From assembly GCF_900243075.1 (NCBI RefSeq), contig NZ_OEZH01000003.1:1-50689 (forward strand): a stretch of 50,689 bases of DNA, written 5' to 3'. A model generated the notes under the pieces. The model was not told the DNA's origin and made no database searches. It saw nothing but the letters and a program-made list of their open reading frames with translations. How positions within the stretch are numbered: position 1 is the stretch's first letter; each line of letters starts with the position of its first letter. The DNA comes from Clostridioides difficile (GTDB taxonomy: Bacteria; Bacillota; Clostridia; Peptostreptococcales; Peptostreptococcaceae). Shown one piece after another: positions 1 to 49,936 of the stretch. Made by a program: the position numbers and the translations under genes.

Positions 1-90
1 AGAACTATACCAAATCGTAGTAGCTTAGGCAAGGCGAGGTTCAATGAAGAAGGAAAAATCTCGATATGGATATATTTGACCATATTTTGA
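1..90 (+). CDS. 3' end of an unidentified protein (partial)
   Basis: An open frame runs from the first base to a TGA at 88-90 and gives 29 residues ending in WIYLTIF. It lies 16 nt upstream of the acetyltransferase start on the same strand, as expected for the tail of an upstream gene in one transcript. The fragment is too short to assign a family, and the open frame could be chance. Confidence 0.35.
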   Translation, partial: RTIPNRSSLGKARFNEEGKISIWIYLTIF

Positions 91-2035: not shown

Positions 2036-5000
2036 ATGGATAATATAATAAGTGTATTGAATAATGTTGTGTTTTTAGATATAGAAGTTAGTGGATTAGA
2101 TTATTTAAATTCAGAAATTTTAGAAGTTGGAGCTGTTAAGGTTAAAGATTGGAAAGTAGATACATATCAATCATTAATAAAAAATAAATCTGAGGTACCT
2201 ATAGAAGTATTCTCAATATGTAGAAATTTAGATAAAAATGATTTAGAAATAGCTAATGAAATAGAAAAAGTAGAAGATAGACTTATAAATTTTGTAGAAG
2301 ATAGCTTGATTATATGTCATGATTTAAGTTTGAAAAAAAAGTTTTTTGAATATCATATGCCAAAGTTAAAAAACAAATTTATTGATTCAATTGAATTAGC
2401 AGTTATTTTAGAACCATATCATAAAGATTATAGCTTAGAATACTTAAAAAATACTTTAACAAATTGTAATTCTAAAGTGAAAAATAGGGCTTTATCAGAT
2501 GCTATTGATATAATAAATGTTGTAAATTGCCTTCTAGTAAGATTTAATAGTTATGAAAAAACTACTTTAGAGCCATTAAGCTTTAAAATAAATTCATATC
2601 TTAAAAAATTTAATCTCCCAACATGGGAGTGGAGTAAATTTTTAGAGGAGGCAAATTATGATTTATCAAACAATATAAATGTTAAAAAAGAATACAAGAG
2701 ATTTAATTCAAAAGAAGAAAGTAAAAAAGAAAAAGAAACCTTAAAACTTTTAAATGAAGAAGAAAAAAATTATGAAGAATTATTAAAATATAAAACTATC
2801 TGGGAGAATAAAGAAGGATTTACATATGAGTATAGACCTGGTCAATATGAGCTTTCTAAAACAATAAGGGAGTTGTTTAGAAATAGTGAATATGAAGAAA
2901 AAATTGCGTGTATAGAAGCTCCAACTGGTATAGGTAAAAGTGTAGGATATTTATTGCCTGCTATATTAGAATCTAGAATTAATAAAAAAAGATTACTAAT
3001 TTCTACTGATACAAAGGAGTTGCAGATACAATTAATAAATAAAGATATTCCAAATGTATTAGATTCTTTGGGGCTAAATGGAAAAGTAAGTTATGGGTAT
3101 ATAAAAGGTAAAAATAATTATATTTGTATAGATAGACTGGAAACATATATAGCAGATTATGAATCTCAAAACCCCACTAAAGGAGAAATATTATCTTTAA
3201 TATTTTTAGAGAGGTTAGTTGAAGGTGGTAAATATGGAGATATAGAAGAGATAAATTATTGGGTGTTGGATAATTTTAAGGAAATAAGTATTCATTTAAG
3301 AAACATAAGTTGTGACCCAAATATGTGCAGACCTAAAAAATGTAAAAAGGATTGTTTATATAAAAATAGAATAGAAGAATTGAAAGATGAACATATAACA
3401 GTAGTAAATCACTCACTATTAGCTAAATGGCCATATAAAGATGAAAAACCTTTAGAAAATATAATAGTAGATGAAGCACATAATCTGACTGAAAAGGGAT
3501 ATGATTTTTTTTCAAGTATTGTAAATTCAAAGTCTTTAAGGTATTTATTACAAGAAATTTATCCTTACGAGTTTATTCAAAATAGTAGCTTCATATATAA
3601 AAAATACAGTAGAAATATGAGGAAAATAAAGGCTTTTGACAAATTTTATAACGTATTAAAAATTGAAAGAAAAGATAAACAAAAAATTGCAAGAAGTATA
3701 AATCTTATTCTTGAAGAGATAGATTCAATATTGAACTTTGGCAGTTGTAATGAATATAATAGTGTGAGTAATTATAATTTGAGATGGGAACTGAATTTGC
3801 AAATAGATGAAATTGCGGGAAAATTGAAGAAAGATGGTGTGGATACTGAAATAAGCTATAGAGTTTATAGTGAAAAGATAAAGTTAAGTTGTGAAAAAAT
3901 AATGAAAAATTTAGTTTCAATAATAATAACAATTTATAGGAACATTGATGATGACAGTATAGATAAAGAAGCAGATATATATAAATTTGGAAAGGCAAAG
4001 ACAAGAGATTTAGAGGATATAAAGATTATCTTTGAAATCTTTTTAGAATATGATGAAAAGGATGATTATGCAAGGATAGTTGAAATTGATAAGAATTATA
4101 ATGATTTTGAATTTCGAGTAGTACCATTAAAAATAGCGGATTTGTTTGAAGAAAATATTTTATCTCAATTAGAAAAAGGAATATTTTTGTCTGCGACTTT
4201 AAGTTTATCTGAAAATATGTCTTATTTTAAAAGTACATTAGGAATAAATAGGGTTAAGAATGTAGAAAAGATTATAGAACCAATTTTTGATTATAAAAAT
4301 AGGGTTTCTGTAGTTGCATTTTCTGACATCTGTGAGTACAGAAATTCTGAATTTCCAAATGAAATGAGTAAAATTATATCTAATATATCACAGATTACAG
4401 AAGGTCATACCTTGGCTCTTTTTAATAGTAAAGATAGACAAGAAAAGACTTATGAAATATTGAAAAAATATTTACATGGTTTTAACTTAGAAATTTATGC
4501 TGATAAAAAGGGTATTAGGCATCTTAATGATTTGAGTAGAAAATGTGTAGTACTTGGTTCAAAAGGATGTTTTGAGGGTGTAGATATTCCAGGAGATGGT
4601 TTGGTATGTGTAACTTTAGACAAGCTTCCAAATCTAAATCCTAAAGACCCTTTGTATTTTACTATAATGAAGAAGTATAATATAGATTACTATACTATGA
4701 ATTATCCTCAAATGACTATAAAGGTAAAGCAAGCTATGGGGAGAATTTTAAGAAGTAAATATGACTATGGATGTTTTGTGATTTTTGATGTAGGAACTAA
4801 TATAAGTGTGCTGAAGAGATTAGAGAAAGATTTACATGGTTGTAAAATTTCAAAGGTGAATAGCAATGAGTTTTATACTTATATAAAGCAACATTTCAAT
4901 AAATCTAGAAGTCTAATACTAAAATCTGTTATATTCGATACTGTAAAAGCGTTGAATGTTGATGCTAAAATAGATAACAATGATGTTGATAAGGATATTA

Positions 5001-5155
5001 TAAGAAAAGATATGAATGAAAATATAAGACAAAGAGCTGTAAAAGGAGAAGTGTATCATATAGATATTGTAAACAAAGATATGAAAGTAAAATATTTTGA
5101 TAGAAACTATCTAATAAATTTAGATATATTTATGAGAGAAGAACATAAAAACTAA
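2036..5155 (+). CDS. dinG: DinG-family Fe-S helicase with N-terminal DnaQ-like domain
   Basis: The protein has 1039 residues. Residues 1-165 form a DEDDh (DnaQ/epsilon) exonuclease-like domain with D15-x-E17 in FLDIEVSG. The XPD/DinG superfamily 2 helicase follows: Walker A APTGIGKS (295-302), a cysteine set C364, C431, C436 and C440 (C426 nearby) in the place of the DinG 4Fe-4S cluster, DEAH at 479-482, and a C-terminal motif VI region MGRILRSKYD. It is expected to unwind DNA or R-loops during repair. The exonuclease domain lacks two catalytic positions: K100 stands where the second Asp is expected and N150 where the His is expected, so it may be inactive. RNase HI follows 17 nt downstream, suggesting a joint role on RNA-DNA hybrids. 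Confidence 0.88.
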   Translation: MDNIISVLNNVVFLDIEVSGLDYLNSEILEVGAVKVKDWKVDTYQSLIKNKSEVPIEVFSICRNLDKNDLEIANEIEKVEDRLINFVEDSLIICHDLSLKKKFFEYHMPKLKNKFIDSIELAVILEPYHKDYSLEYLKNTLTNCNSKVKNRALSDAIDIINVVNCLLVRFNSYEKTTLEPLSFKINSYLKKFNLPTWEWSKFLEEANYDLSNNINVKKEYKRFNSKEESKKEKETLKLLNEEEKNYEELLKYKTIWENKEGFTYEYRPGQYELSKTIRELFRNSEYEEKIACIEAPTGIGKSVGYLLPAILESRINKKRLLISTDTKELQIQLINKDIPNVLDSLGLNGKVSYGYIKGKNNYICIDRLETYIADYESQNPTKGEILSLIFLERLVEGGKYGDIEEINYWVLDNFKEISIHLRNISCDPNMCRPKKCKKDCLYKNRIEELKDEHITVVNHSLLAKWPYKDEKPLENIIVDEAHNLTEKGYDFFSSIVNSKSLRYLLQEIYPYEFIQNSSFIYKKYSRNMRKIKAFDKFYNVLKIERKDKQKIARSINLILEEIDSILNFGSCNEYNSVSNYNLRWELNLQIDEIAGKLKKDGVDTEISYRVYSEKIKLSCEKIMKNLVSIIITIYRNIDDDSIDKEADIYKFGKAKTRDLEDIKIIFEIFLEYDEKDDYARIVEIDKNYNDFEFRVVPLKIADLFEENILSQLEKGIFLSATLSLSENMSYFKSTLGINRVKNVEKIIEPIFDYKNRVSVVAFSDICEYRNSEFPNEMSKIISNISQITEGHTLALFNSKDRQEKTYEILKKYLHGFNLEIYADKKGIRHLNDLSRKCVVLGSKGCFEGVDIPGDGLVCVTLDKLPNLNPKDPLYFTIMKKYNIDYYTMNYPQMTIKVKQAMGRILRSKYDYGCFVIFDVGTNISVLKRLEKDLHGCKISKVNSNEFYTYIKQHFNKSRSLILKSVIFDTVKALNVDAKIDNNDVDKDIIRKDMNENIRQRAVKGEVYHIDIVNKDMKVKYFDRNYLINLDIFMREEHKN

Positions 5156-5172
5156 GAGTGGGAGTGATATAT

Positions 5173-5772
5173 TTGGCAAAACAAAAGTTTTATGCCGTAA
5201 AAAAAGGTAAAAGTATAGGTGTATATAATACATGGGATGAGTGCAAAAAACAAGTAAATGGATTTTCAGGAGCTGAATATAAGAGTTTTTCTACTTTGCA
5301 AGAAGCAAAAGAATATATTTATGGGTCAGAAAAACTAAGCTTTAAAGAAGACGAGGAATTTATAGAAGCGTATGTAGATGGAAGTTATGAACATTCAATA
5401 AAGATGTATGGCTCAGGTGTTGTAATTTTAAAAAATAATGAAGTTATAAAAACCTATAGTGAAAAAGGAAAAGAGGAAACTCTAGTAGGAATGAGAAATG
5501 TAGCTGGGGAGATAGAAGCTTCTAAGATTGCAATGCAATATTGTATTGATAATAACATTCAAAACTTGATTTTATATTTTGACTATGAAGGTATTGAAAA
5601 GTGGTGTACTGGAGTTTGGAAAACAAATAAAGAAGGGACTATAGCATATAAAAATTTCTATGACAGTATTAAGAATAAGCTTAATGTAAAATTTACAAAG
5701 GTTAAAGCACACTCTGGAAATAAGTATAATGAAGAAGCTGATAAATTAGCTAAAAAAGCTATTGGTGTATAA
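5173..5772 (+). CDS. rnhA: Ribonuclease HI with N-terminal hybrid-binding domain
   Basis: The protein has 199 residues from TTG 5173, chosen because GGGAGTG (5160-5166) lies 6 nt upstream; an in-frame GTG at 5158 would place the start before that ribosome binding site. Residues 1-50 (KFYAVKKGKSIGVY...) form the small RNase H/viroplasmin-like hybrid-binding domain found in eukaryotic-type RNase H1. The catalytic domain has all four acids: D in AYVDGSYEHS, E in GEIEASK, D in YFDYEGIEKW, and D in EEADKLAKKA. It cleaves the RNA strand of RNA-DNA hybrids. It directly follows the DinG-like helicase and is probably co-transcribed with it. Confidence 0.9.
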   Translation: MAKQKFYAVKKGKSIGVYNTWDECKKQVNGFSGAEYKSFSTLQEAKEYIYGSEKLSFKEDEEFIEAYVDGSYEHSIKMYGSGVVILKNNEVIKTYSEKGKEETLVGMRNVAGEIEASKIAMQYCIDNNIQNLILYFDYEGIEKWCTGVWKTNKEGTIAYKNFYDSIKNKLNVKFTKVKAHSGNKYNEEADKLAKKAIGV

Positions 5773-5865
5773 TGAAAAGCTATTTATACATAGTAAGATG
5801 CTATAAGAGTATATTTAAACTCTTAACTTATAATTAAATAACTTATAATTAAATAAATTTTGATT

Positions 5866-5970
5866 AAAAAAGCAGATTGTATTATGAGAAAATAAGTATC
5901 TAATTTAGAAACAATTAATAGTAGTATTAATTAGATACAGCTTATTTAATATAATAAAATCTGCTTTTTT
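5866..5970. terminator. Long bidirectional hairpin terminator
   Basis: AAAAAAGCAGATT (5866-5878) pairs with AATCTGCTTTTTT (5958-5970). Nested inside, TATCTAATT pairs with AATTAGATA, and AATAAG pairs across a short offset with CTTATT. It separates convergent rnhA and cotE and has U tracts in both directions. Confidence 0.75.
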
Positions 5971-5999
5971 ATATAATTATAAAATTTTACTATATTCTA

Positions 6000-8129
6000 T
6001 TAGAATTGCCCATAAATACCTTCAAGTTCTTCTTTTAATACCTCAGGGTCATTTATACCAATAGACATGGTTCTAGCCAATATATTTGCCTGGTCGTAAG
6101 TTGATGTCCATGAGAATACACCACCTAGACAATTTCTAAGAACATATTGAGTTTTTAAGAATATTGATAAAGCATCATCATATGACATTGCAAAATCTCC
6201 GTCTTTAACTAAATATGGAACTTGAGCAGTATTATCAAATCTATATTCATATCCATTTTTATTTATATAATCCCTTCTAAGTTCATCATAAGTTCTTGTT
6301 ATAGTAGCACCTAATCTTCCATAAAATGGTATGCCAAGAAGAATTTTCTCAGAAGGCATTCCAGCATTTTCAAGATTTCTTACCATTGCATCAACACTAT
6401 ATCCTGGTAAAGATAAGTCAGAATCAAAAAGGTTTGCTTGATGTTTTCTACCATTTGCTCCTGTTTCACCTGCTGTAAAATCATAGCTCATAAGATTGAA
6501 ATAATCTATTATTGGAGCTATTTTATCTATTTCAGCACTTGAATTTATATATCCTCTATCTCCTGTTCCAGCTACACTAAGCCATTTGTCATCTCCTATA
6601 ACGTCTCTTATGGCAGTTAGTAAAAGTGTAAAGTTTTCTCTATCTTGAGGTCTTGATGTTATCCCAGATGCACTACTTCCAGGATATTCCCAGTCTATAT
6701 CCACTCCATCTAAAGCGTATTCATTTATCATCTGATTAACCTGTCTTGCAAAATTGTACCTAGATGTAGGAGTTAATGCTGCATCAGAGAAGCCTTCAGC
6801 TCCCCAACCTCCAATAGCTACAATTACTTGTAAACTAGGTTTTTCACCTTTAAGAGCAAGTAATTGATTTAAAAATCTAGGATAAGGAATAAACAAATTG
6901 CCAGACTGGTCTATCTCTGCAAAAGCAAAGATAACTGCATCCAATAATTGTGCATCTACATTAGTTGGGTTACCAAGAACATATTCCGCCACAATTGGAT
7001 TGATATCTGGACAGTTTACATTTTCAACTATTGGATTGTATGGGTCTGTTATTTGTGGTCTAACTAATTTTTTTGACTCTTTTAAAGTCTTCATAGCTAT
7101 TTTTTTAGTATTTTTTTCACTAGTATAATCGTAGTTTTTATAATTGTGCTTATAGAAATCTTCATAACTACTATCTTCTTTATCATAGCTAGAGCTTATT
7201 TTGTCACAAGATTTGTCTTTGTCGTAGTTATAATTTGTTTCATCACAAGATTTATCTTTAAACTTATCTTGCTTGAAGTTGTGAGCCTTGTTAGTATTTT
7301 TGTTGTGTTTTTTATCATGCTTACAATCATCTTTTATGTCAGTTTTGTGTTCTTGTTTACAGTCAAGAGCTTTGTTAGTGTAGTCATGCTGTTCATGTTC
7401 ACAATTACATTCGTTCTCAATGTTTTTAGTATGTTCTGTTTTCCAGCTATAAGTATTATCAATTTTCTTGTTCAATTCTTCATGATTATAATTATCTGGT
7501 ACAAAACATAAATACCAATCCATACAAGAATATTTCTTATTACAGCTGTTAACTCTATTTTTTAATTCTTTATAGTTTTTAGGATATGGCAAAATCACTG
7601 GCATTCCAGGGAACCAATTCGCAGGAGTAACTATATTATCTCTATCACTAGTTTGAAGTGCATCTACTATTCTAAGTATTTCTGGAATATTTCTTCCTGT
7701 AGTTAGTGGATAATAAAGAATTGTTCTTAAAATTTGATTATTATCTATAATAAATACAGAACGGACAGTTGATGTATCACTCATTGGTTTTGATATCATG
7801 CCATATAATTTGGCAATTCTCATATCTCTATCTTCTATAATAGGAAATGGAATTTCTACACCTGTAAGTAAAGAAATATTGTACATCCAAGCTAAATGTG
7901 AGCTATTGCTATCAACACTTAGACCAATTAGTTCTGTATTTCTTTTTTTAAATTCGTCATAATATTTAGCAAAACATAAAAATTCTGTAGTACAAACTGG
8001 TGTAAAATCACCAGGATGTGAAAATAAAACAATCCAATTACCTTTATAATCAGAGAGTCTAATAGAGCCGTTTGTTGTATTGGCTTTAAAATCAGGAGCC
8101 TTTGATCCTAAACTTGGCAAATTTGGCAT
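6000..8129 (-). CDS. cotE: CotE, bifunctional peroxiredoxin-chitinase spore coat protein
   Basis: The protein has 709 residues from ATG 8129, which has GAGGGGTGAT upstream; an in-frame GTG three codons earlier gives 712. The N-terminal AhpC/1-Cys peroxiredoxin domain (about 1-215) has the peroxidatic Cys46 in FTPVCTTEF. A low-complexity linker of about 130 residues follows, rich in Lys, Asp, His, Tyr and Cys. The C-terminal GH18 chitinase domain has the catalytic D-G-V-D-I-D-W-E motif and the IGGWG strand. This fusion is the known C. difficile CotE coat protein, linked in the literature to mucin and chitin degradation and colonisation. No signal peptide is seen, consistent with assembly on the spore from the mother cell. 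It is a single-gene transcript between a terminator and a divergent membrane protein gene. Confidence 0.95.
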   Translation of the reverse strand: MPNLPSLGSKAPDFKANTTNGSIRLSDYKGNWIVLFSHPGDFTPVCTTEFLCFAKYYDEFKKRNTELIGLSVDSNSSHLAWMYNISLLTGVEIPFPIIEDRDMRIAKLYGMISKPMSDTSTVRSVFIIDNNQILRTILYYPLTTGRNIPEILRIVDALQTSDRDNIVTPANWFPGMPVILPYPKNYKELKNRVNSCNKKYSCMDWYLCFVPDNYNHEELNKKIDNTYSWKTEHTKNIENECNCEHEQHDYTNKALDCKQEHKTDIKDDCKHDKKHNKNTNKAHNFKQDKFKDKSCDETNYNYDKDKSCDKISSSYDKEDSSYEDFYKHNYKNYDYTSEKNTKKIAMKTLKESKKLVRPQITDPYNPIVENVNCPDINPIVAEYVLGNPTNVDAQLLDAVIFAFAEIDQSGNLFIPYPRFLNQLLALKGEKPSLQVIVAIGGWGAEGFSDAALTPTSRYNFARQVNQMINEYALDGVDIDWEYPGSSASGITSRPQDRENFTLLLTAIRDVIGDDKWLSVAGTGDRGYINSSAEIDKIAPIIDYFNLMSYDFTAGETGANGRKHQANLFDSDLSLPGYSVDAMVRNLENAGMPSEKILLGIPFYGRLGATITRTYDELRRDYINKNGYEYRFDNTAQVPYLVKDGDFAMSYDDALSIFLKTQYVLRNCLGGVFSWTSTYDQANILARTMSIGINDPEVLKEELEGIYGQF

Positions 8130-32624: not shown

Positions 32625-32647
32625 AATATCAATAGCAAATTAAAAAT

Positions 32648-32926
32648 CCTATGACAAGGAAGAGTAATTATGTTTAGCTTCAACATAGAGAGCTGAGGAT
32701 GGTGGAATCTTAGCAAGAAGGAATATAGTGAATGGACCTTGGAGGAGTAAATTGAAATCATATTATTATGAGAGTAGACTTTATCGTCAGTCGCACGTTA
32801 CAGCGAATAGGGTATGTAAGTACCTGATAATGAGATATATAAGAATTGAACTTTAGGTTTATTTTTATATAATTTAGGTGGCAACGCGGATAATCTCCGT
32901 CCTATTAATTTAGGACGGAGTTTTTT
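32648..32926 (+). ncRNA. T-box riboswitch, tryptophan specific
   Basis: Stem I is closed by CAAGG/CCTTG (32655-32659 and 32737-32741). It contains the conserved AGAGAGCTGAGGATGGTGGAA-like region (near 32687-32707) and the specifier loop GAA-TGG-ACC, with specifier codon TGG at 32733-32735, which reads tRNA-Trp. The T-box bulge GGTGGCAACGCGG lies at 32877-32889. Its TGGC would pair with a GCCA tRNA end, that is discriminator G73, as bacterial tRNA-Trp has. The terminator CTCCGTCCTA/TAGGACGGAG (32895-32904, 32911-32920) is followed by TTTTTT. Uncharged tRNA-Trp should favour the antiterminator and switch on the transporter downstream. Confidence 0.95.
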
Positions 32927-43547: not shown

Positions 43548-45559
43548 TTAAGCTATTTCTTTTATTTGTTTAAATGAGTTTTCATTTCCATTTCCACCAA
43601 TTTGTGTTACAGATTTAAATCTCATAGTTTTAAATAGTTCTTTTTGATTATAATCTAGTGAGTTTCCTACTAGTATTACAGGAGACTTAGTTTTTCCAGC
43701 CAAAACTCCAACAGATAATCCGTCTATTAAATCATCTTGTTTATTCATTCCATTTTTAGCAACATATAAGTTGTCTATCTTAGAATCCTTGTAAAATTCT
43801 TTTATTACTTTTGCATTAGTTTCATTTCTAGTGCTACCTGATATTCTCTGTGGATTTTGAAGTTTACTTTCTATATTTTTAGAAACTGTATATTCTCCAC
43901 CGATTACATAAGATTTATCAATCTTTTTGTTTTTAAATAAGTTATTTATTTCAGTTATATTACTATTTTCATTAGTAAGTATTATAGGCATATCATTTTG
44001 AGCTGATACAGCTCCAATGCTTACTGCATCGGCTAATCCTTTTTCACCATTAACTACTGAAATCTTTGATATATTACTAATATTATTCAATTCTTTAGCA
44101 ATATTCATAGATGTTTGATATCTATCACTTCCTGAAATTCTAGATACAGAGATATTGTTTGATTTTATAGTATCTAGAGATTTTTCATTTATAGAAGCCT
44201 CTCCACCAACTACATATACATTTTTAACTTTTAATCTCTTTAATTCAGCCAAAGTTTTTTCATTTATTTGAGAGCTTCCAGTCAATAATATAGGAGCATT
44301 TTTCTTGTATGCAAATGGTGTTGCAGCCAAAGCATCTGCAATTGCTGAGTCGTTTATTAAAACTGCATTTTCAGCACTTTCCCAACCTGCTTGACTTATC
44401 TTAATAGAAGTTTCATATCTATCAGTTCCTGTAAGTGCACTTGCATTTACTTCATCTTGATATGTAACTTCAAATCTAGCATTTGGACTTCCTGAGAAAA
44501 CAATTACGCCTCCTTTTGGCAATCTAACTCTATTGTTCTTTGTAACTAAAGAATAGTTTACAGGAACTCCTTTATCATCATAAACAGCAAAAGATGAATT
44601 TTGAGGAAGATTAACTTCTATTTTTTTATTTGCTATATCATCACCAATCTTATACCATTTTGCATAACCATTAGATGCTAGTTCGCAAGTAAAAGATTTT
44701 TCTGCTGGCAAATTAGTTATAGAATCTTCACTAACATAAGTTTGTGTGGCAAAAGATAAATACTCTGTACCATTTTCTTTATAAAGTTTAATATCGGATA
44801 AATCACGACCTATTACACCAGGTATTTCTATAAAAGCATTTGAGTTATTCTCATCTATTATCTTAGTGTTAACTATATAACCTGGAGTTTCATCAGAAAG
44901 ACCAAGAGTTGCCTTTACAGAACCAAACATATAGCTTTGAGAAGTATATTTTTCATCTACTAGATAGTAGCCTTTACCATTTCTTTTTTTCCACACTTCT
45001 TTTACACTATTTGATATATTGTTGTCATCTACCTTTTGAGCCACATAGTATAAACTTGCTGTCTGACCTAATCCAGGGACATCATCATAAGAGCTCATAT
45101 TTAGATATGTGATATTATTTTTTTCTTTTACAAATTTTAAACAACTATTACCTTTTTCAGATACAAATCTATCTTGACCTATGTATACGTATTTATCTTC
45201 AGGTCCATTTTCTATATAAGGAGAAGACACTATTAAAGTACCATTGTCATTAACCTCGACCTTTATCATATTTGAAGAAGCATAAAGACCACTGTTTTCT
45301 TTTAAATAGCTTGGCATTTTAACTTGTTGTGGTTTGCTAAACGTTTTATCAGGTTTTATTTCTTTAATTTTACCTTTTTCTTTTAATGCAGAGAGTAAGA
45401 TTTCTTGTCCAATTATTTCATCAAGTTGACTATTTCCACCAGAAGAAAGAACTGCAACTGCCATATTTTCATCTGGAAGAACTATAAGATTACTGTGGAA
45501 TAGTAAAGAGTCTCCACCTTTTGTAAGAGCTTTTAAGTTATACTGATTAAATGGATAAG
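43548..45559 (-). CDS. cwp20: cwp20 3' exon: rest of the serine hydrolase plus three CWB2 repeats
   Basis: This is the downstream exon of a gene split by the group II intron. Joined to 48907-49936 it gives 1013 codons plus a stop, in frame (1030 + 2012 = 3042 nt), with junction A|CT reading V-N-T-Y-P-F. The exon begins YPFNQYNLKALTKGGD, where K-G-G is the third active-site motif of the class C beta-lactamase/PBP fold. A middle region (about 400-730 of the joined protein) follows, then three CWB2 repeats (RYETSIKISQ, RISGSDRYQTS and RISGSTRNETN starts), which anchor C. difficile proteins to the wall polymer PSII. It has no start with a ribosome binding site of its own, so expression needs splicing. 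Confidence 0.9.
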
Positions 45560-45561
45560 AT

Positions 45562-45589
45562 AGCAATAGGTAAGAGTTTGATGCTATCT
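45562..45589 (-). ncRNA. Group II intron domain VI
   Basis: On the minus strand ATAGCA and TGCTAT form a short stem around an A-rich strand and loop (CAAACTCTTACCTA) ending at the intron 3' end. The branch-point A is expected in the 3' strand but cannot be fixed by eye. Confidence 0.55.
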
Positions 45590-45608
45590 CCGTCTTTTCC
45601 CCTGCTCC

Positions 45609-45642
45609 ACACCGTACGTGAGACTTTCACCTCATACGGCGT
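45609..45642 (-). ncRNA. Group II intron domain V (catalytic hairpin)
   Basis: The hairpin is exactly 34 nt, the canonical D5 length. The minus strand starts ACGCCGTATGAGG, has a GAAA tetraloop and closes with CACGTACGGTGT. The outer stem holds the catalytic CGC triad with a G-U pair, and the mid-stem bulge is in the usual place. It appears intact, so the ribozyme may be active. Confidence 0.9.
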
Positions 45643-45661
45643 TCCCCCAAGAATCTATCAA

Positions 45662-47503
45662 TCATATTATTTCATTTCCGATTTTCTTACGATATTTATT
45701 CAATTTCTTAATTTCTTGATTGTCTAAGTTTAGTTCCTTTATATAATATTGTATGTGTTCAATATTAGTTGCATGAATAAGTTTATGTATTTCTGGTATA
45801 ACTAAAATCAAATTCCTAAATTTATCATCACCTCCTTTGTTGACTGGTGTGATGTGGTGTGCTTCCATATTTTCTACTAATGGATAACCACTTATAATAC
45901 ATGTTCCTTTCTGTGCTGAATATTTTGATAACCTATTGTCATTATATTCTACACTTTTATTGAGTACAGGGTTATATGCTATATAGTTGAGTATATTATT
46001 ATCTATACAACCTAACCTTGTATGTATTATTTTCCGACCTTCTTTCGTATAATTTGATACCGTTTGATTAAATAAAAACGGTGGGGTCGTTTTGATTCCA
46101 GTTAGAGGATACATGATTTCATTTAGTATATATTGCTTCTTTAAGTTATATTTACTATATTTACTTTCATATTCATGCGTTAAATTTCCTGTAGAAGTTC
46201 TTAGATTTTTCAAGCGATTATATAAACTGAAAGAAAGATTATATTTAATGTTCTTAAAGTCTTGATATACATTCGCTACTACTTTATAATAGTTATGAGA
46301 ACCAGCAATAATTCTATTCAACATGTTGATATTCTTAGTTGTTGGAAAATGCTGTATAGCTATTAATTGTTCTTTTATATTGTGACTGACTTGCTCTTTA
46401 GCTTTGTCAGTCATTTTTGTATAAACAATATATTTATTTCGCTTTTTATAAGCTTTGATTTTGAAACCCAAAAATTCGGAGTTAGAGTATCTAACATCTG
46501 TGATTTTGGATTTTTCTTGACTTATTTCTAATCCTAATCTTTCTTTTAGCCATTTTTGTGTAGCTATAAAGACTCGATTAGCCTCGCTAACATTTTTACA
46601 CATAATTTTGAAATCATCAGCATATCTAACTATATACATTTCTTTTAAATTAGTTTGTCTCAATGCTCTGTACAAGTGGCTTGTATTAGAATATTGATAA
46701 TGAGTTTTATGTGTTTGCCATTGGTTGCTTATCCACCAGTCTAATTCGTTTAAAACTATATTTGATAGTAGGGGAGAAAGTATTCCACCCTGTGGGACTC
46801 CTTTGTTAGGAATCCCAACTTTGTCGATTTCAGCTTTTAACATTGAACTGATAATACTTAGGAGTTTCTTATCGTGTATACCGATTGACCAAAGTTGTTT
46901 TAATAATTTGCTATGCTTAACATTATCAAAGAAACTTTTAATGTCAATGTCTATAACAGTATACATATGTTCAAAGTTAATTTTCTTAACTACATATGCT
47001 AAAGCGTGTTCCGTACCACGATTAGGTCTAAAACCATAACTATGTGGATGAAATTTTGCTTCACATATTGGTTCTAGAACTTGCTTTATACATTGCTGAA
47101 TTATTCTATCTTCTATACAGGGTATTCCAAGAGGTCTCATTTTCCCATTAGGTTTTGGAATTTCAACTCGTCTAACTTTTTGAGGTTTGTAATTCATTAA
47201 CCTGTTTTGTATATACTGGACAAATATTTTAGTATCTTTCGTTTTCCAGTAATTTATATTGTGTCTATTTGTACCTGCTGTTTTACTTCCTGTATTAGTT
47301 TTAACGTTTCTATAAGCTAGTAATATATTTTCTTCACTAGATATTAAATTAAATAATTTGGTGAACTTACTTCCTTCAAGGCTTTGTTTATACAAATTGT
47401 CGAATGTATTTTGCAAGTTATAATATTCATTATATCTTAGTTTGTCTTTCTTTAATGGTTGTAAATCCTGTTTAATTATTGACTTCGTATCTGTATTATA
47501 CAT
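45662..47503 (-). CDS. ltrA: Group II intron reverse transcriptase/maturase with HNH endonuclease
   Basis: The protein has 613 residues, full length. Reverse transcriptase blocks are present in order: RPLGIPCIEDRIIQQCI, HSYGFRPNRGTEHAL, VIDIDIKSFFDN, GVPQGGILSPLLSNIVLNELD, the catalytic YADD in VRYADDFKIMC, and LGLEISQEKSKI then SEFLGF. A maturase (X) domain follows (about 380-500). The C-terminal HNH endonuclease (about 545-590) has CIISGYPLVENMEAHHITP and the distal KLIH. It stabilises intron RNA for splicing and copies it into new DNA sites. AAAGGAGATAAT lies upstream of the ATG. No frameshift is visible. Confidence 0.95.
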   Translation of the reverse strand: MYNTDTKSIIKQDLQPLKKDKLRYNEYYNLQNTFDNLYKQSLEGSKFTKLFNLISSEENILLAYRNVKTNTGSKTAGTNRHNINYWKTKDTKIFVQYIQNRLMNYKPQKVRRVEIPKPNGKMRPLGIPCIEDRIIQQCIKQVLEPICEAKFHPHSYGFRPNRGTEHALAYVVKKINFEHMYTVIDIDIKSFFDNVKHSKLLKQLWSIGIHDKKLLSIISSMLKAEIDKVGIPNKGVPQGGILSPLLSNIVLNELDWWISNQWQTHKTHYQYSNTSHLYRALRQTNLKEMYIVRYADDFKIMCKNVSEANRVFIATQKWLKERLGLEISQEKSKITDVRYSNSEFLGFKIKAYKKRNKYIVYTKMTDKAKEQVSHNIKEQLIAIQHFPTTKNINMLNRIIAGSHNYYKVVANVYQDFKNIKYNLSFSLYNRLKNLRTSTGNLTHEYESKYSKYNLKKQYILNEIMYPLTGIKTTPPFLFNQTVSNYTKEGRKIIHTRLGCIDNNILNYIAYNPVLNKSVEYNDNRLSKYSAQKGTCIISGYPLVENMEAHHITPVNKGGDDKFRNLILVIPEIHKLIHATNIEHIQYYIKELNLDNQEIKKLNKYRKKIGNEII

Positions 47504-47862
47504 CGTATAGGTCGATTATCTCCTTTGTATATATTTATAAGGAATATAATCTTTCTTAATCGTACTCGAACCCTAATGTAATTTGAAATAATAGATAATT
47601 TTTAGATTGTTGGCTAAAGCCCATCCCTCCACCACTTATTATCATGGCTTCAACGGTACTATGGCTTCGCTTTCCGGAGACATTAACAGAAGTTATATTA
47701 GATTTGTACATAGTTTGATGTTCCTAGGGGGATAGAATCCCCCTGAGGTTCGTGAGGTAGTTAGATTGTATACAACTTGTTTTACCATCTTATTATTAAA
47801 GATTATATATTTAAAGTTGTATTTATACATTTTGAGTTTTAAATTCATTGTATTTCTTTAGG
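47504..47862 (-). ncRNA. Structured intron segment between hairpin and maturase ORF
   Basis: There is no gene here. On the minus strand it contains a strong hairpin around GGGGGATTCTATCCCCC (47726-47742) preceded by CTACCTCACGAACC, and a GC-richer stretch TGTCTCCGGAAAGCGAAGCC. Both look like ribozyme secondary structure rather than a coding or leader region. I could not assign the domain numbers with confidence. Confidence 0.5.
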
Positions 47863-47907
47863 ATTAGGTATGAGAAAATAATTTAATTATTTTCTCATAT
47901 TCCTAAT
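47863..47907. repeat. 45-nt near-perfect hairpin inside the intron
   Basis: TATGAGAAAATAATT (47869-47883) pairs perfectly with AATTATTTTCTCATA (47885-47899), with a one-base loop. After a 2-nt bulge the outer ATTAGG (47863-47868) pairs with CCTAAT (47902-47907). It follows the small intron ORF. Confidence 0.8.
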
Positions 47908-47934
47908 AATTTTCTACAAAGTCTTTAACTATGA

Positions 47935-47960
47935 ATATAAAGAGTATTTACTCTTTATAT
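47935..47960. repeat. 26-nt perfect palindrome at the end of the small intron ORF
   Basis: ATATAAAGAGTA (47935-47946) and TACTCTTTATAT (47949-47960) flank a 2-nt centre. It spans the stop codon of the 80-codon ORF, so it could act as a 3' end stabiliser; no T run follows. Confidence 0.7.
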
Positions 47961-48190
47961 TTGGGGTTTTTAACAGGTTGGTTTGCTACCAACGGATTGG
48001 AGATGAATGGCACTTCATCTCCAACATTTTCTGTTAAATCCTTTACTGGACAGACATTCGATTGGTATGTACCAATTTCCTGTCTGAGCATTTCATTTGT
48101 TACTAATGAATCTATATATTCCAGTTTTTTACGTCTTTTTTCTTTGTAGTTTTCTATTATTCCTTTTGATATGAATTTATGTTTCCTCAT
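47948..48190 (-). CDS. Small accessory ORF within the group II intron, unknown
   Basis: The protein has 80 residues from ATG 48190, which has GAGGATGG upstream; earlier in-frame ATGs at 48208 and 48202 are possible. The N-terminal half is strongly basic and helical (MRKHKFISKGIIENYKEKRRKKLEYIDSL). The C-terminal half is polar with one Cys (TYQSNVCPVKDL) and ends in PVKNPKYKE. No domain is recognised. It lies on the same strand as the maturase gene but 445 nt upstream of it, inside the intron. The basic helix suggests nucleic acid binding, which is inference. Typical group II introns carry only the maturase ORF. Confidence 0.55.
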   Translation of the reverse strand: MRKHKFISKGIIENYKEKRRKKLEYIDSLVTNEMLRQEIGTYQSNVCPVKDLTENVGDEVPFISNPLVANQPVKNPKYKE

Positions 48191-48256
48191 TGTATATACC
48201 ATCCTCATTTTGAAATTTGCATAAAAAACCCATTAAAGCATTTTATACTTAAGGAT

Positions 48257-48285
48257 AGATTAACATATTTACCAAAATTTGTCAA
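48257..48285 (-). promoter_or_regulatory. Candidate promoter for the small intron ORF
   Basis: On the minus strand a perfect TTGACA (48285-48280) is followed after 17 nt by TAATCT (48262-48257), about 67 nt upstream of the small ORF start. The -10 match is weak (3 of 6). Confidence 0.35.
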
Positions 48286-48299
48286 TATATTACATCAAA

Positions 48300-48906
48300 A
48301 TATTCTAAATTTCCTTCTGAACGCTTCATTGACTTTGTATTAGGCTTATCTCAGCGTTGCTCCCTTCCCAAGTTCCAATACCTTTATCTTTTACCATATA
48401 GTTTTAGGTTTCTCCTCTGACCCTGACCTCTTGATAATGCCTTTAACATTATAAAGTATTTCATATCAACAAATTTTACTCTACTTCAAGGTCTACTGTT
48501 TAAGTCCCATTACATTTCTATAATGTTTGTGTTTAGAGCCGTACATTCGGAGATTCGTCAGTAGTTTTTACCTACTATTCTAACCATGACTATTTTATAG
48601 ACGCCCAGCCTATCATGTACTTGACTACCTCTAGCCCCATTTCCTGTTTTTCTATAGATTCTATAAGTAAGGTTCAGTCCAGTAGAACCTAGTCACACGA
48701 CATAGCGAATCATATAGAACCTTAGGGTACACTCTCAGCTGTCTTTATCGAGCTTATAACCTTCAATTCCCAATCAATTGAACGCTATTCGAAGTATCAG
48801 CGACTGCCTTTCAAGACGTTACTCTATCATTCGACAGTTCAAGGTATCAGTTCAATAATTAATAAATCATTATTGGCTAATCTTTTCAATTAGCAACTTG
48901 TCGCAC
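48300..48906 (-). ncRNA. Group II intron 5' ribozyme region (mainly domain I)
   Basis: There is no long ORF in about 600 nt; base composition is less AT-rich than the flanking genes. The minus strand starts GTGCGAC and contains many short complementary segments, including the candidate EBS1 UGUUGA (48471-48466) and, tentatively, EBS2 AAUCUC (48555-48550), which could pair with GGGAUU upstream in the exon. It resembles domain I in length and position. Confidence 0.7.
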
Positions 48907-49936
48907 TGTTGACACAATCCCACCCTAAACCATATCCAAGTATAGAGTCTTCTCCTTCAGGCCATAGACCATTCAAATATTCTTTGTTTTCCATAGCTTT
49001 TACTGAAGCAGGAGAAAGAATACCATTTGAGTTTTTCATAAATGTTTGTGCAAATGTACATAGATTTTCTGCACTTGAATATAAACCACCTGCACCTATA
49101 GCATTAAGGTTATCTTGTGGAACTGCATCTTCCCAATAAGGTACATATGCTTTTGCTAGTTTTGAACTATCAAAACTATTTTCTGTAGTTTTTGTATTTT
49201 GTAAGTTAAGTGGATTATTTATGTATTTATCAAGAAAATTAGTAAATGACATACCAGATACTCTTTCTACTAAAATTTCAGCTAAAGTAAATCCATCATT
49301 ACAATAAACAGAAAAAGCTCCTGGTTTAGCTTTTAATCTTTGTTTTTGTAATTCTTTTAAGAAATTATCATGACCATAAGAATCATTGTCTGCTAATAAA
49401 ATAGTGTTTTTAAAACTACTTCCCATCAACCCTGATGAATGATTTAATAGCATTCTTGGAGTGATTTCCTTGTATCTATCATCAGCCATTTTAAATTCAG
49501 GTATATAATTTACAACAGGAGTATCTAAATTTACTTTTCCATCATCAACCAACTTCATAACGGCTGTTGTAGTAAACATTTTACTGATAGATGCAATACT
49601 ATACATGTTATCCTTATTTAAGTTTTTGTTATCTTGCTTGCTATAAACTCCACCATTACCAGAAATCTCAATTTTGCCATTATCAATCAAGGCATATTGA
49701 GCACTTACAGCACCATACTTTGATAGCAAGGTTTGGATTTTCTCTTTGGCAAGAGCTTTAGTTTTTGGGTAAGATTCCGAGTTTTTACTATAATCATGTA
49801 ATTCTATATCAGAACTTTGATATTTTTCGGAATTATCTCTTGTACTATCAGCAAAAGTAATATTTGGAGCAGCAGTAAATAACATACTCAATACTAATGT
49901 ACTAGATAATAATTTAGAGAGCCTTTGCTTAAACAT
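48907..49936 (-). CDS. cwp20: cwp20 5' exon: signal peptide and serine beta-lactamase-like domain
   Basis: This is the upstream exon of cwp20. A signal peptide (1-29, cleavage near FADS) is followed by a class C beta-lactamase/PBP-like domain with S116-I-S-K119 (nucleophile and Lys) and Y211-C-N213, the second motif. It also contains PRMLLNHSSGL and YGLGWDCVN, typical of this family. The exon ends at the first base of codon 344. If unspliced, translation would add S-A-T-S-C from intron sequence and stop, giving 348 residues without the KGG motif or wall anchor. The start ATG follows GAGGTAAT. In reference strains I recall this gene as continuous; here it is interrupted. Confidence 0.9.

What the first reader, a model, noticed from the sequence alone, without database searches (positions are those of the whole stretch)
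43548..49936. A full-length group II intron splits cwp20 between active-site motifs, and splicing at consensus boundaries restores the frame
Seen: the minus strand has GTGCG at 48906, a 34-nt D5, D6, and a 3' end in AT at 45560. Removing 45560-48906 joins 1030 and 2012 nt into one 1014-codon frame (V-N-T-Y-P-F at the junction). The intron falls after SxxK and YxN but before KGG, so an unspliced gene cannot encode a whole hydrolase or its three CWB2 anchors. Known: CWB2 proteins depend on the repeats for wall attachment. Inference: surface display of Cwp20 in this strain depends on splicing efficiency.
Basis: partly seen in the sequence, partly recalled or inferred. Interest (0 to 1): 0.85.

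Follow-up and report, generated by a model that had tools for sequence, protein, structure and literature searches.

The report
Self-splicing intron splits surface-protein gene
A complete mobile self-splicing intron sits inside the gene for the surface protein Cwp20 of a Clostridioides bacterium, and the bases flanking it match the uninterrupted gene of relatives, so this strain can probably make the whole protein only by splicing the intron out; it is a clear new example of a known kind of element.

Summary
A 3,347-nt group II intron (45560-48906, minus strand) splits cwp20. All nine cwp20-like alleles found in seven congener genomes are intron-free, and the window's two flanks map to abutting bases in them. 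The closest (G007) has exactly 1014 codons and reads V-N-T-Y-P-F at the site. Covariation across related introns recovers all three exon-recognition pairings: EBS1 and EBS2 with the 5' exon (65 introns) and EBS3 with the 3' exon (72 of 78). The window's own letters pair at every one. The reverse transcriptase/maturase frame is intact. Both exons show purifying selection against G007 (dN/dS 0.10 and 0.11). No spliced RNA was seen, so splicing and dependence of surface display on it remain inference.

It is a new member of a known kind: group II introns in a C. tetani S-layer gene and in C. difficile Tn5397 are published. Two extras are less ordinary: a domain I hairpin near-identical in two otherwise diverged introns of this genome, and a large loop insert with an orphan frame. 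All three full-length relatives of the intron protein found in this genome lie in introns inside protein genes, one of them dnaE.

The parts
48907..49936 (-). cwp20 5' exon (1030 nt; N-terminal region and most of the beta-lactamase-like domain)
45560..48906 (-). group II intron, 3347 nt
43548..45559 (-). cwp20 3' exon (2012 nt; end of the beta-lactamase-like domain, linker, three CWB2 stretches)
48902..48906 (-). 5' intron boundary motif GTGCG
48594..48855 (-). domain I core, Rfam RF02004
48650..48720 (-). extra 71-nt hairpin in domain I, near-identical to that of the intron in this genome's corrinoid-protein gene
48907..48912 (-). IBS1 (exon positions -1 to -6)
48913..48917 (-). IBS2 (exon positions -7 to -11)
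48527..48531 (-). EBS2
48466..48471 (-). EBS1
48417..48417 (-). EBS3 (G, pairs with C at 45559)
45559..45559 (-). IBS3, first base of the 3' exon
47671..48363 (-). enlarged stretch downstream of the EBS3 region, in or near domain III (693 nt; median of 86 introns 82 nt); domain assignment by position only, limits approximate
47948..48208 (-). orphan small ORF in that stretch (86 codons, or 80 from the second ATG); expression doubtful
45662..47503 (-). intron-encoded protein, 613 aa: reverse transcriptase (YADD intact), maturase, HNH-like end
45560..45644 (-). domains V and VI, Rfam RF00029

Best explanation
A mobile group II intron of the IIB type (class-B-like) inserted by retrohoming into a cwp20 site that matches its EBS1, EBS2 and EBS3. 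Shown: an intact ribozyme core at both ends, an intact maturase frame, and splice sites fixed to the base by intron-free alleles and by three covarying exon pairings. Inferred: the cwp20 pre-mRNA folds, the intron-encoded protein assists, the intron leaves and the exons join to give the normal 1013-aa wall-anchored protein with a beta-lactamase-like domain. Unspliced message would give only a 348-aa fragment ending a few codons into the intron, without the KGG motif and without CWB2 anchors, so the amount of surface Cwp20 is capped by splicing. No special regulation is needed to explain the locus.
For: Rfam domain I and D5-D6 matches. Nine of nine intron-free alleles in seven congeners, flanks abutting; G007 allele 1014 codons, VNTYPF. 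EBS1/IBS1 pairs 6 of 6 in 48 of 66 introns and at least 5 of 6 in 63 of 66, against 0.7% and 9% of mismatched pairs; 24 of 90 introns were dropped. Covariation finds EBS1, EBS2 and EBS3 columns and the window pairs at all of them. The native site has the best EBS1-plus-EBS2 score of 101,338 positions in the window (the EBS2 letters were chosen after looking at that site, and by EBS1 alone 75 positions score as well). TIGR04416 maturase above cutoff, RVT_1 E 3.7e-42. Exon dN/dS versus G007 0.097 and 0.11. Two other introns of this genome sit equally exactly in a corrinoid-protein gene (7 of 7 congeners empty) and in dnaE. A C. difficile group II intron (Tn5397) is reported to splice in vivo with need for its protein (PMC4430133, passages).
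Against: No RNA data. dN/dS covers the whole time since the G000/G007 split, so it does not show selection after insertion. The extra hairpin and the 693-nt stretch could weaken folding; domains II to IV were not modelled. HNH is just below Pfam's curated cutoff (20.5 against 21.4). cwp20 may be dispensable (not tested), so splicing could fail without visible cost.
Confidence: 0.85

Rival explanations
1. The intron is intact as DNA but splices poorly or not at all here, so cwp20 is in effect a disrupted gene and only the N-terminal fragment is made.
For: Two unusual insertions in the ribozyme; a recent insertion would leave exons intact whatever the splicing. PMC4424553 (passages) says the majority of bacterial copies are truncated or inactivated.
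Against: Domain I core, D5, D6, EBS1-3 and the protein frame are intact; a relative with the same extra hairpin and its own large insert sits equally precisely in a corrinoid-protein gene; another relative persists inside dnaE of this genome.
Confidence: 0.1
2. Alternative or shifted splicing makes several Cwp20 isoforms, as in the C. tetani S-layer locus.
For: Same broad gene class and intron type as C.te.I1 (PMC3919590; abstract, first part of Results and Discussion seen).
Against: Only one D5-D6 match in the window at gathering threshold; IBS1 and IBS2 lie directly before the boundary motif; canonical splicing already restores the frame, whereas C. tetani needs an 8-nt shift.
Confidence: 0.03
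3. Assembly artefact or chance motif.
For: Draft genome of 187 contigs.
Against: Whole intron and both exons lie inside one contig, with flanks base-identical to G007 near the site and covarying pairings.
Confidence: 0.01

Closest known systems
C.te.I1, group II intron in an S-layer gene of Clostridium tetani (PMC3919590; abstract, first part of Results and Discussion seen)
   Same: Group II intron with GUGCG boundary splitting a clostridial surface-protein gene; most similar to class B according to its authors
   Different: C.te.I1 has no intron-encoded protein, lacks EBS2, has four D5-D6 motifs and a shifted 5' site, giving five mRNAs; this one encodes its protein, keeps EBS1-EBS3, has one D5-D6 and a canonical junction
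Group II intron of Tn5397 orf14 in C. difficile (PMC4430133, passages)
   Same: Intron with its own protein in the same bacterial group; splicing in vivo and need for the protein reported
   Different: Carried in a conjugative-transposon gene; here a wall-protein gene, whose G007 counterpart lies on a 4.1-Mb contig. Mobile genes beside the window copy were not looked for and the two intron sequences were not compared
Ll.LtrB copy in a cell-surface-protein gene of L. lactis SK11 (PMC5072309, passages)
   Same: Mobile group II intron found in a surface-protein gene
   Different: Described there as a likely retrotransposition into an ectopic site; another intron class (recalled)
IStrons of C. difficile (PMC4430133, passages)
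   Same: Splicing mobile elements in this bacterium
   Different: Group I intron joined to an insertion sequence, not group II

Membership tests
Group II intron | 5' GUGYG and 3' AY boundaries | tested here: met
   GTGCG at 48906-48902, AT at 45561-45560; AT in 79 of 80 related introns with a mapped end, of 90
Group II intron | Conserved domain I core and D5-D6 | tested here: met
   RF02004 144.1 bits, RF00029 62 bits. Domains II-IV were not modelled
Group II intron | 5' exon recognised by EBS1-IBS1 and EBS2-IBS2 | tested here: met
   Covariation in 65 introns (of 78 aligned); window pairs at exon positions -1 to -11
Group II intron, IIB type | 3' exon recognised by EBS3-IBS3 | tested here: met
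   One column complementary in 72 of 78 introns, 26.7 expected; window G-C. IIC introns use it too (PMC4424553, passages), so this alone does not tell IIB from IIC
Mobile group II intron | Encoded reverse transcriptase/maturase with endonuclease domain | tested here: met
   TIGR04416 349.2 bits against cutoff 300; RVT_1; YADD intact; HNH-like end scores just under Pfam's cutoff
Mobile group II intron | Empty-site alleles in relatives | tested here: met
   9 of 9 cwp20-like alleles in 7 congeners
Bacterial class B intron | Protein falls in clade B of a reference tree | not tested
   No labelled references at hand. EBS3 use and an HNH-like end fit. PMC4424553 passages: class B is IIB and found only in Firmicutes; of 80 listed relatives three carry other titles, all metagenome-derived or uncultured (L101, L121, L127), and one says only bacterium (L111)
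Group II intron | Splices in vivo or in vitro | not testable with these tools
   needs RNA
Alternatively spliced intron of the C.te.I1 kind | Several D5-D6 copies and altered EBS1/no EBS2 | tested here: not met
   one D5-D6 at gathering threshold; EBS1 and EBS2 at the usual places

The most novel reading that the evidence does not exclude
The extra 71-nt hairpin in domain I is a sensor or protein-binding domain that makes splicing conditional. Between two introns of this genome whose other parts have diverged it is as conserved as the catalytic D5-D6. That would make this a regulated group II intron controlling a surface protein (Cwp20) and a corrinoid protein together, and the large inserts in the same introns would be accessory cargo genes.
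Probability: 0.06. Interest if true: 0.88.

Novelty: new member of a known kind. Interest (0 to 1): 0.42.

Why it matters
Two papers state that most bacterial group II introns lie outside housekeeping genes (PMC4424553 and PMC5072309, passages). Here the three full-length relatives of the intron protein found in one genome all belong to introns placed precisely inside protein genes (cwp20, a corrinoid-protein gene, dnaE), so the organism must tolerate or rely on splicing. The locus gives a clean natural test, with empty-site relatives, of how far a wall protein depends on ribozyme splicing. An annotation that ignores the intron could take cwp20 here for a pseudogene.

Tried and rejected
Known RNA family in the extra hairpin: only the intron model itself came up. 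Other copies: among 100 genomes, this one included, 19 had matches at E 0.1 or better, but only the two introns of this genome matched over most of the query; the rest were 16-27-nt stretches at one end of it. A covariance model found only those two in 71 genomes of the family, own genome included, with stricter filters, and one further weak hit (L055, E 0.45) in 21 sources. An exact 27-base pattern found none in viral contigs. Two sequences cannot separate function from recent gene conversion between the copies.

Small ORF 47948-48208 as a known protein: no Pfam or NCBIfam match, PHROGs only at E 0.26; none in phages or plasmids; none in 40 relatives. The consensus scan was near background (9 promoter-like sites, 7.3 expected), listed none just upstream, and put its one terminator-like repeat on the other strand inside the ORF. 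By eye there is a TTGACA near 48285 with a poor second hexamer. It may not be a gene. A cargo idea is kept only as a lead: 7 of 86 introns have this stretch over 130 nt, and 4 of the 7 (window, L019, L053, L054) hold frames of 40 codons or more on the intron strand, with no likeness seen by eye. Against it, the opposite strand of three of these inserts (window, L053, L054) holds frames of 44 to 72 codons. In these inserts the script flagged a Shine-Dalgarno on the intron strand only for L053; those of L054 and L019 were read by eye.

EBS2 inside the extra hairpin was considered from the raw pairing list and dropped when covariation placed it at 48527-48531. First anchor patterns lost many introns and were replaced by profile searches. 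A search of 391 Clostridia genomes gave 8, own genome included, with relatives at E 1e-180 or better, none outside this genome above 53% identity.

Literature (open-licence library; listings capped): nothing on a native intron in cwp20 was noticed (25 of 182 listed; 25 of 128; 5 of 5; 10 of 10). In the three papers that hold both terms, the passages shown concern the Tn5397 intron or ClosTron tools. One of them calls cwp20 a known virulence factor (PMC3408451). Searches looked for introns in housekeeping genes and for extra ORFs; nothing on loop cargo was noticed in the listings.

Full report
OBSERVATION. The minus strand carries GTGCG at 48906, a domain I core at 48855-48594 and D5-D6 at 45644-45560 ending in AT. 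The 3,347 nt between hold a 613-codon frame with reverse transcriptase and maturase matches and a sub-cutoff HNH match. Exon 1 (1030 nt) gives Pfam Beta-lactamase; exon 2 (2012 nt) gives three CWB2 stretches. A published table lists C. difficile cwp20 at 1013 aa (PMC10128037, one passage), the length of the intact G007 allele.

EMPTY SITES. Seven congener genomes hold nine cwp20-like alleles, all with open frames of 1015-1017 aa. Mapped apart, the window's flanks end and begin on neighbouring bases in them (9 of 9 displayed). In two alleles (L009, L012) the blastn match of the 5' flank stops two bases short, at a mismatch at exon position -2. G007 is identical for 30 nt before and 20 nt after. 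Its protein reads V-N-T-Y-P-F at the site, with SISK at 116, YCN at 211 and KGG at 357, inside a beta-lactamase-family domain of residues 65-387. So the intron divides the catalytic domain and separates most of it from the anchors. The EBS1 match is 6 of 6 in 7 of the 9 empty alleles and 5 of 6 in the other two; EBS2 is 6 of 6 in 7, with 5 of 6 in L011 and 3 of 6 in L012.

SPLICE SITES BY COVARIATION. Ninety related introns were assembled: 80 from genome contigs (129 relatives found, best 80 kept), 5 from viral contigs, and 5 from this genome and a congener, the window included. EBS1, taken as the six bases before TATGAAA, paired with the six bases before the boundary motif at 6 of 6 in 48 of 66 introns and at least 5 of 6 in 63 of 66. 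Mismatched pairs gave 0.7% and 9%; 24 introns were dropped for missing anchors, motif, boundary or contig edge. In an alignment of 78 introns with mapped 3' ends, one column was Watson-Crick complementary to the first base of the 3' exon in 72 of 78, 26.7 expected; the next best column exceeded expectation by 14. Scanning exon positions -14 to -1 against the columns in 65 introns gave EBS1 for -1 to -6 and EBS2 for -7 to -11 as contiguous antiparallel runs. Signal was weakest at -8 (45 of 65 paired) and -2 (55 of 65), and nothing comparable appeared at -12 to -14. The window's letters form Watson-Crick pairs at each of these. Some rows are close relatives, so counts are not independent events. 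EBS3-IBS3 is the 3' exon recognition of IIB and IIC introns (PMC4424553, passages).

SELECTION. Against G007, exon 1 has dN/dS 0.097 and exon 2 0.11. Three other alleles, of nine, were compared in exon 1 and gave 0.115 to 0.146 (own Nei-Gojobori script). Exon 2 is of no use without splicing, but the comparison spans time before insertion as well.

SETTING. This genome has two more full-length relatives of the protein and one partial, broken match. The first, 69% identical, is in a corrinoid-protein gene (B12-binding domains), a site empty in 7 of 7 congeners. The second, 48% identical, is in dnaE. G004 has another intron at a different dnaE site; each genome is the other's empty site, flanks abutting. 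An intron near or at the groEL stop is also reported for Azotobacter (PMC4465626, passages), so that position recurs.

EXTRAS IN THIS INTRON. First, between the window intron and the corrinoid-gene intron a 76-nt stretch in domain I is 74/76 identical, including a 68-nt exact run, the longest in the intron. The stretches of domain I on either side are 86/128 and 130/175, the protein frame 1344/1842, and D5-D6 82/85. It folds as a branched hairpin (z -2.38; 2 of 200 shuffles as stable), matches no Rfam family at E 5 or better apart from the intron itself, and was found in none of the other 70 genomes of the family. Strong function or recent gene conversion would both explain it. Second, the stretch after the EBS3 region is 693 nt against a median of 82 in 86 introns, the longest of the set, with an orphan small frame whose expression is doubtful.

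VERDICT. The most likely mechanism is ordinary: retrohoming into a matching site, followed by maturase-assisted splicing that restores Cwp20. Splicing itself was not observed. Published precedents make this a new member of a known kind; the conserved extra hairpin is the part worth an experiment.

Noticed in passing
L020 5221-7904 (G000) and L024 reverse strand 4735-7503 (G004): Group II introns at two different sites of dnaE in two Clostridioides genomes; each genome is the other's empty site. L098 and L099 from other Clostridia have a 5' exon end similar to that of L024.
   Followed up: partly
   Followed up: partly
L019 6049-9325 (reverse strand): Intron whose protein is 69% identical to the window's, in a corrinoid-protein gene, with the same extra domain I hairpin but a different insert further on.
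   Followed up: yes
L053 and L054 inserts; L056 domain I base: Small frames in loops of related Clostridium introns: possible cargo besides the intron protein. The L053 one weakly resembles Paratox (E 0.0017, below cutoff).
   Followed up: partly
L023 and L024 (G004): The same intron (protein 620/620 identical; first 620 nt identical by eye) in two places of one genome with different flanks: a recent transposition. The L023 host frame has only a sub-cutoff PRD match.
   Followed up: partly
G001 (L008, L015) and G005 (L007, L014): Two cwp20-like genes in each of these two genomes.
   Followed up: no
L055, L073, L074, L077, L087, L092 5' exons: Several introns insert at near-identical sequence, perhaps the DEYQD motif of a UvrD-type helicase gene (motif recalled, not tested).
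   Followed up: no
window 32642-32907 (+) and 1-55 (+): T-box leader, and a RAGATH-18 RNA cut by the window edge.
   Followed up: no
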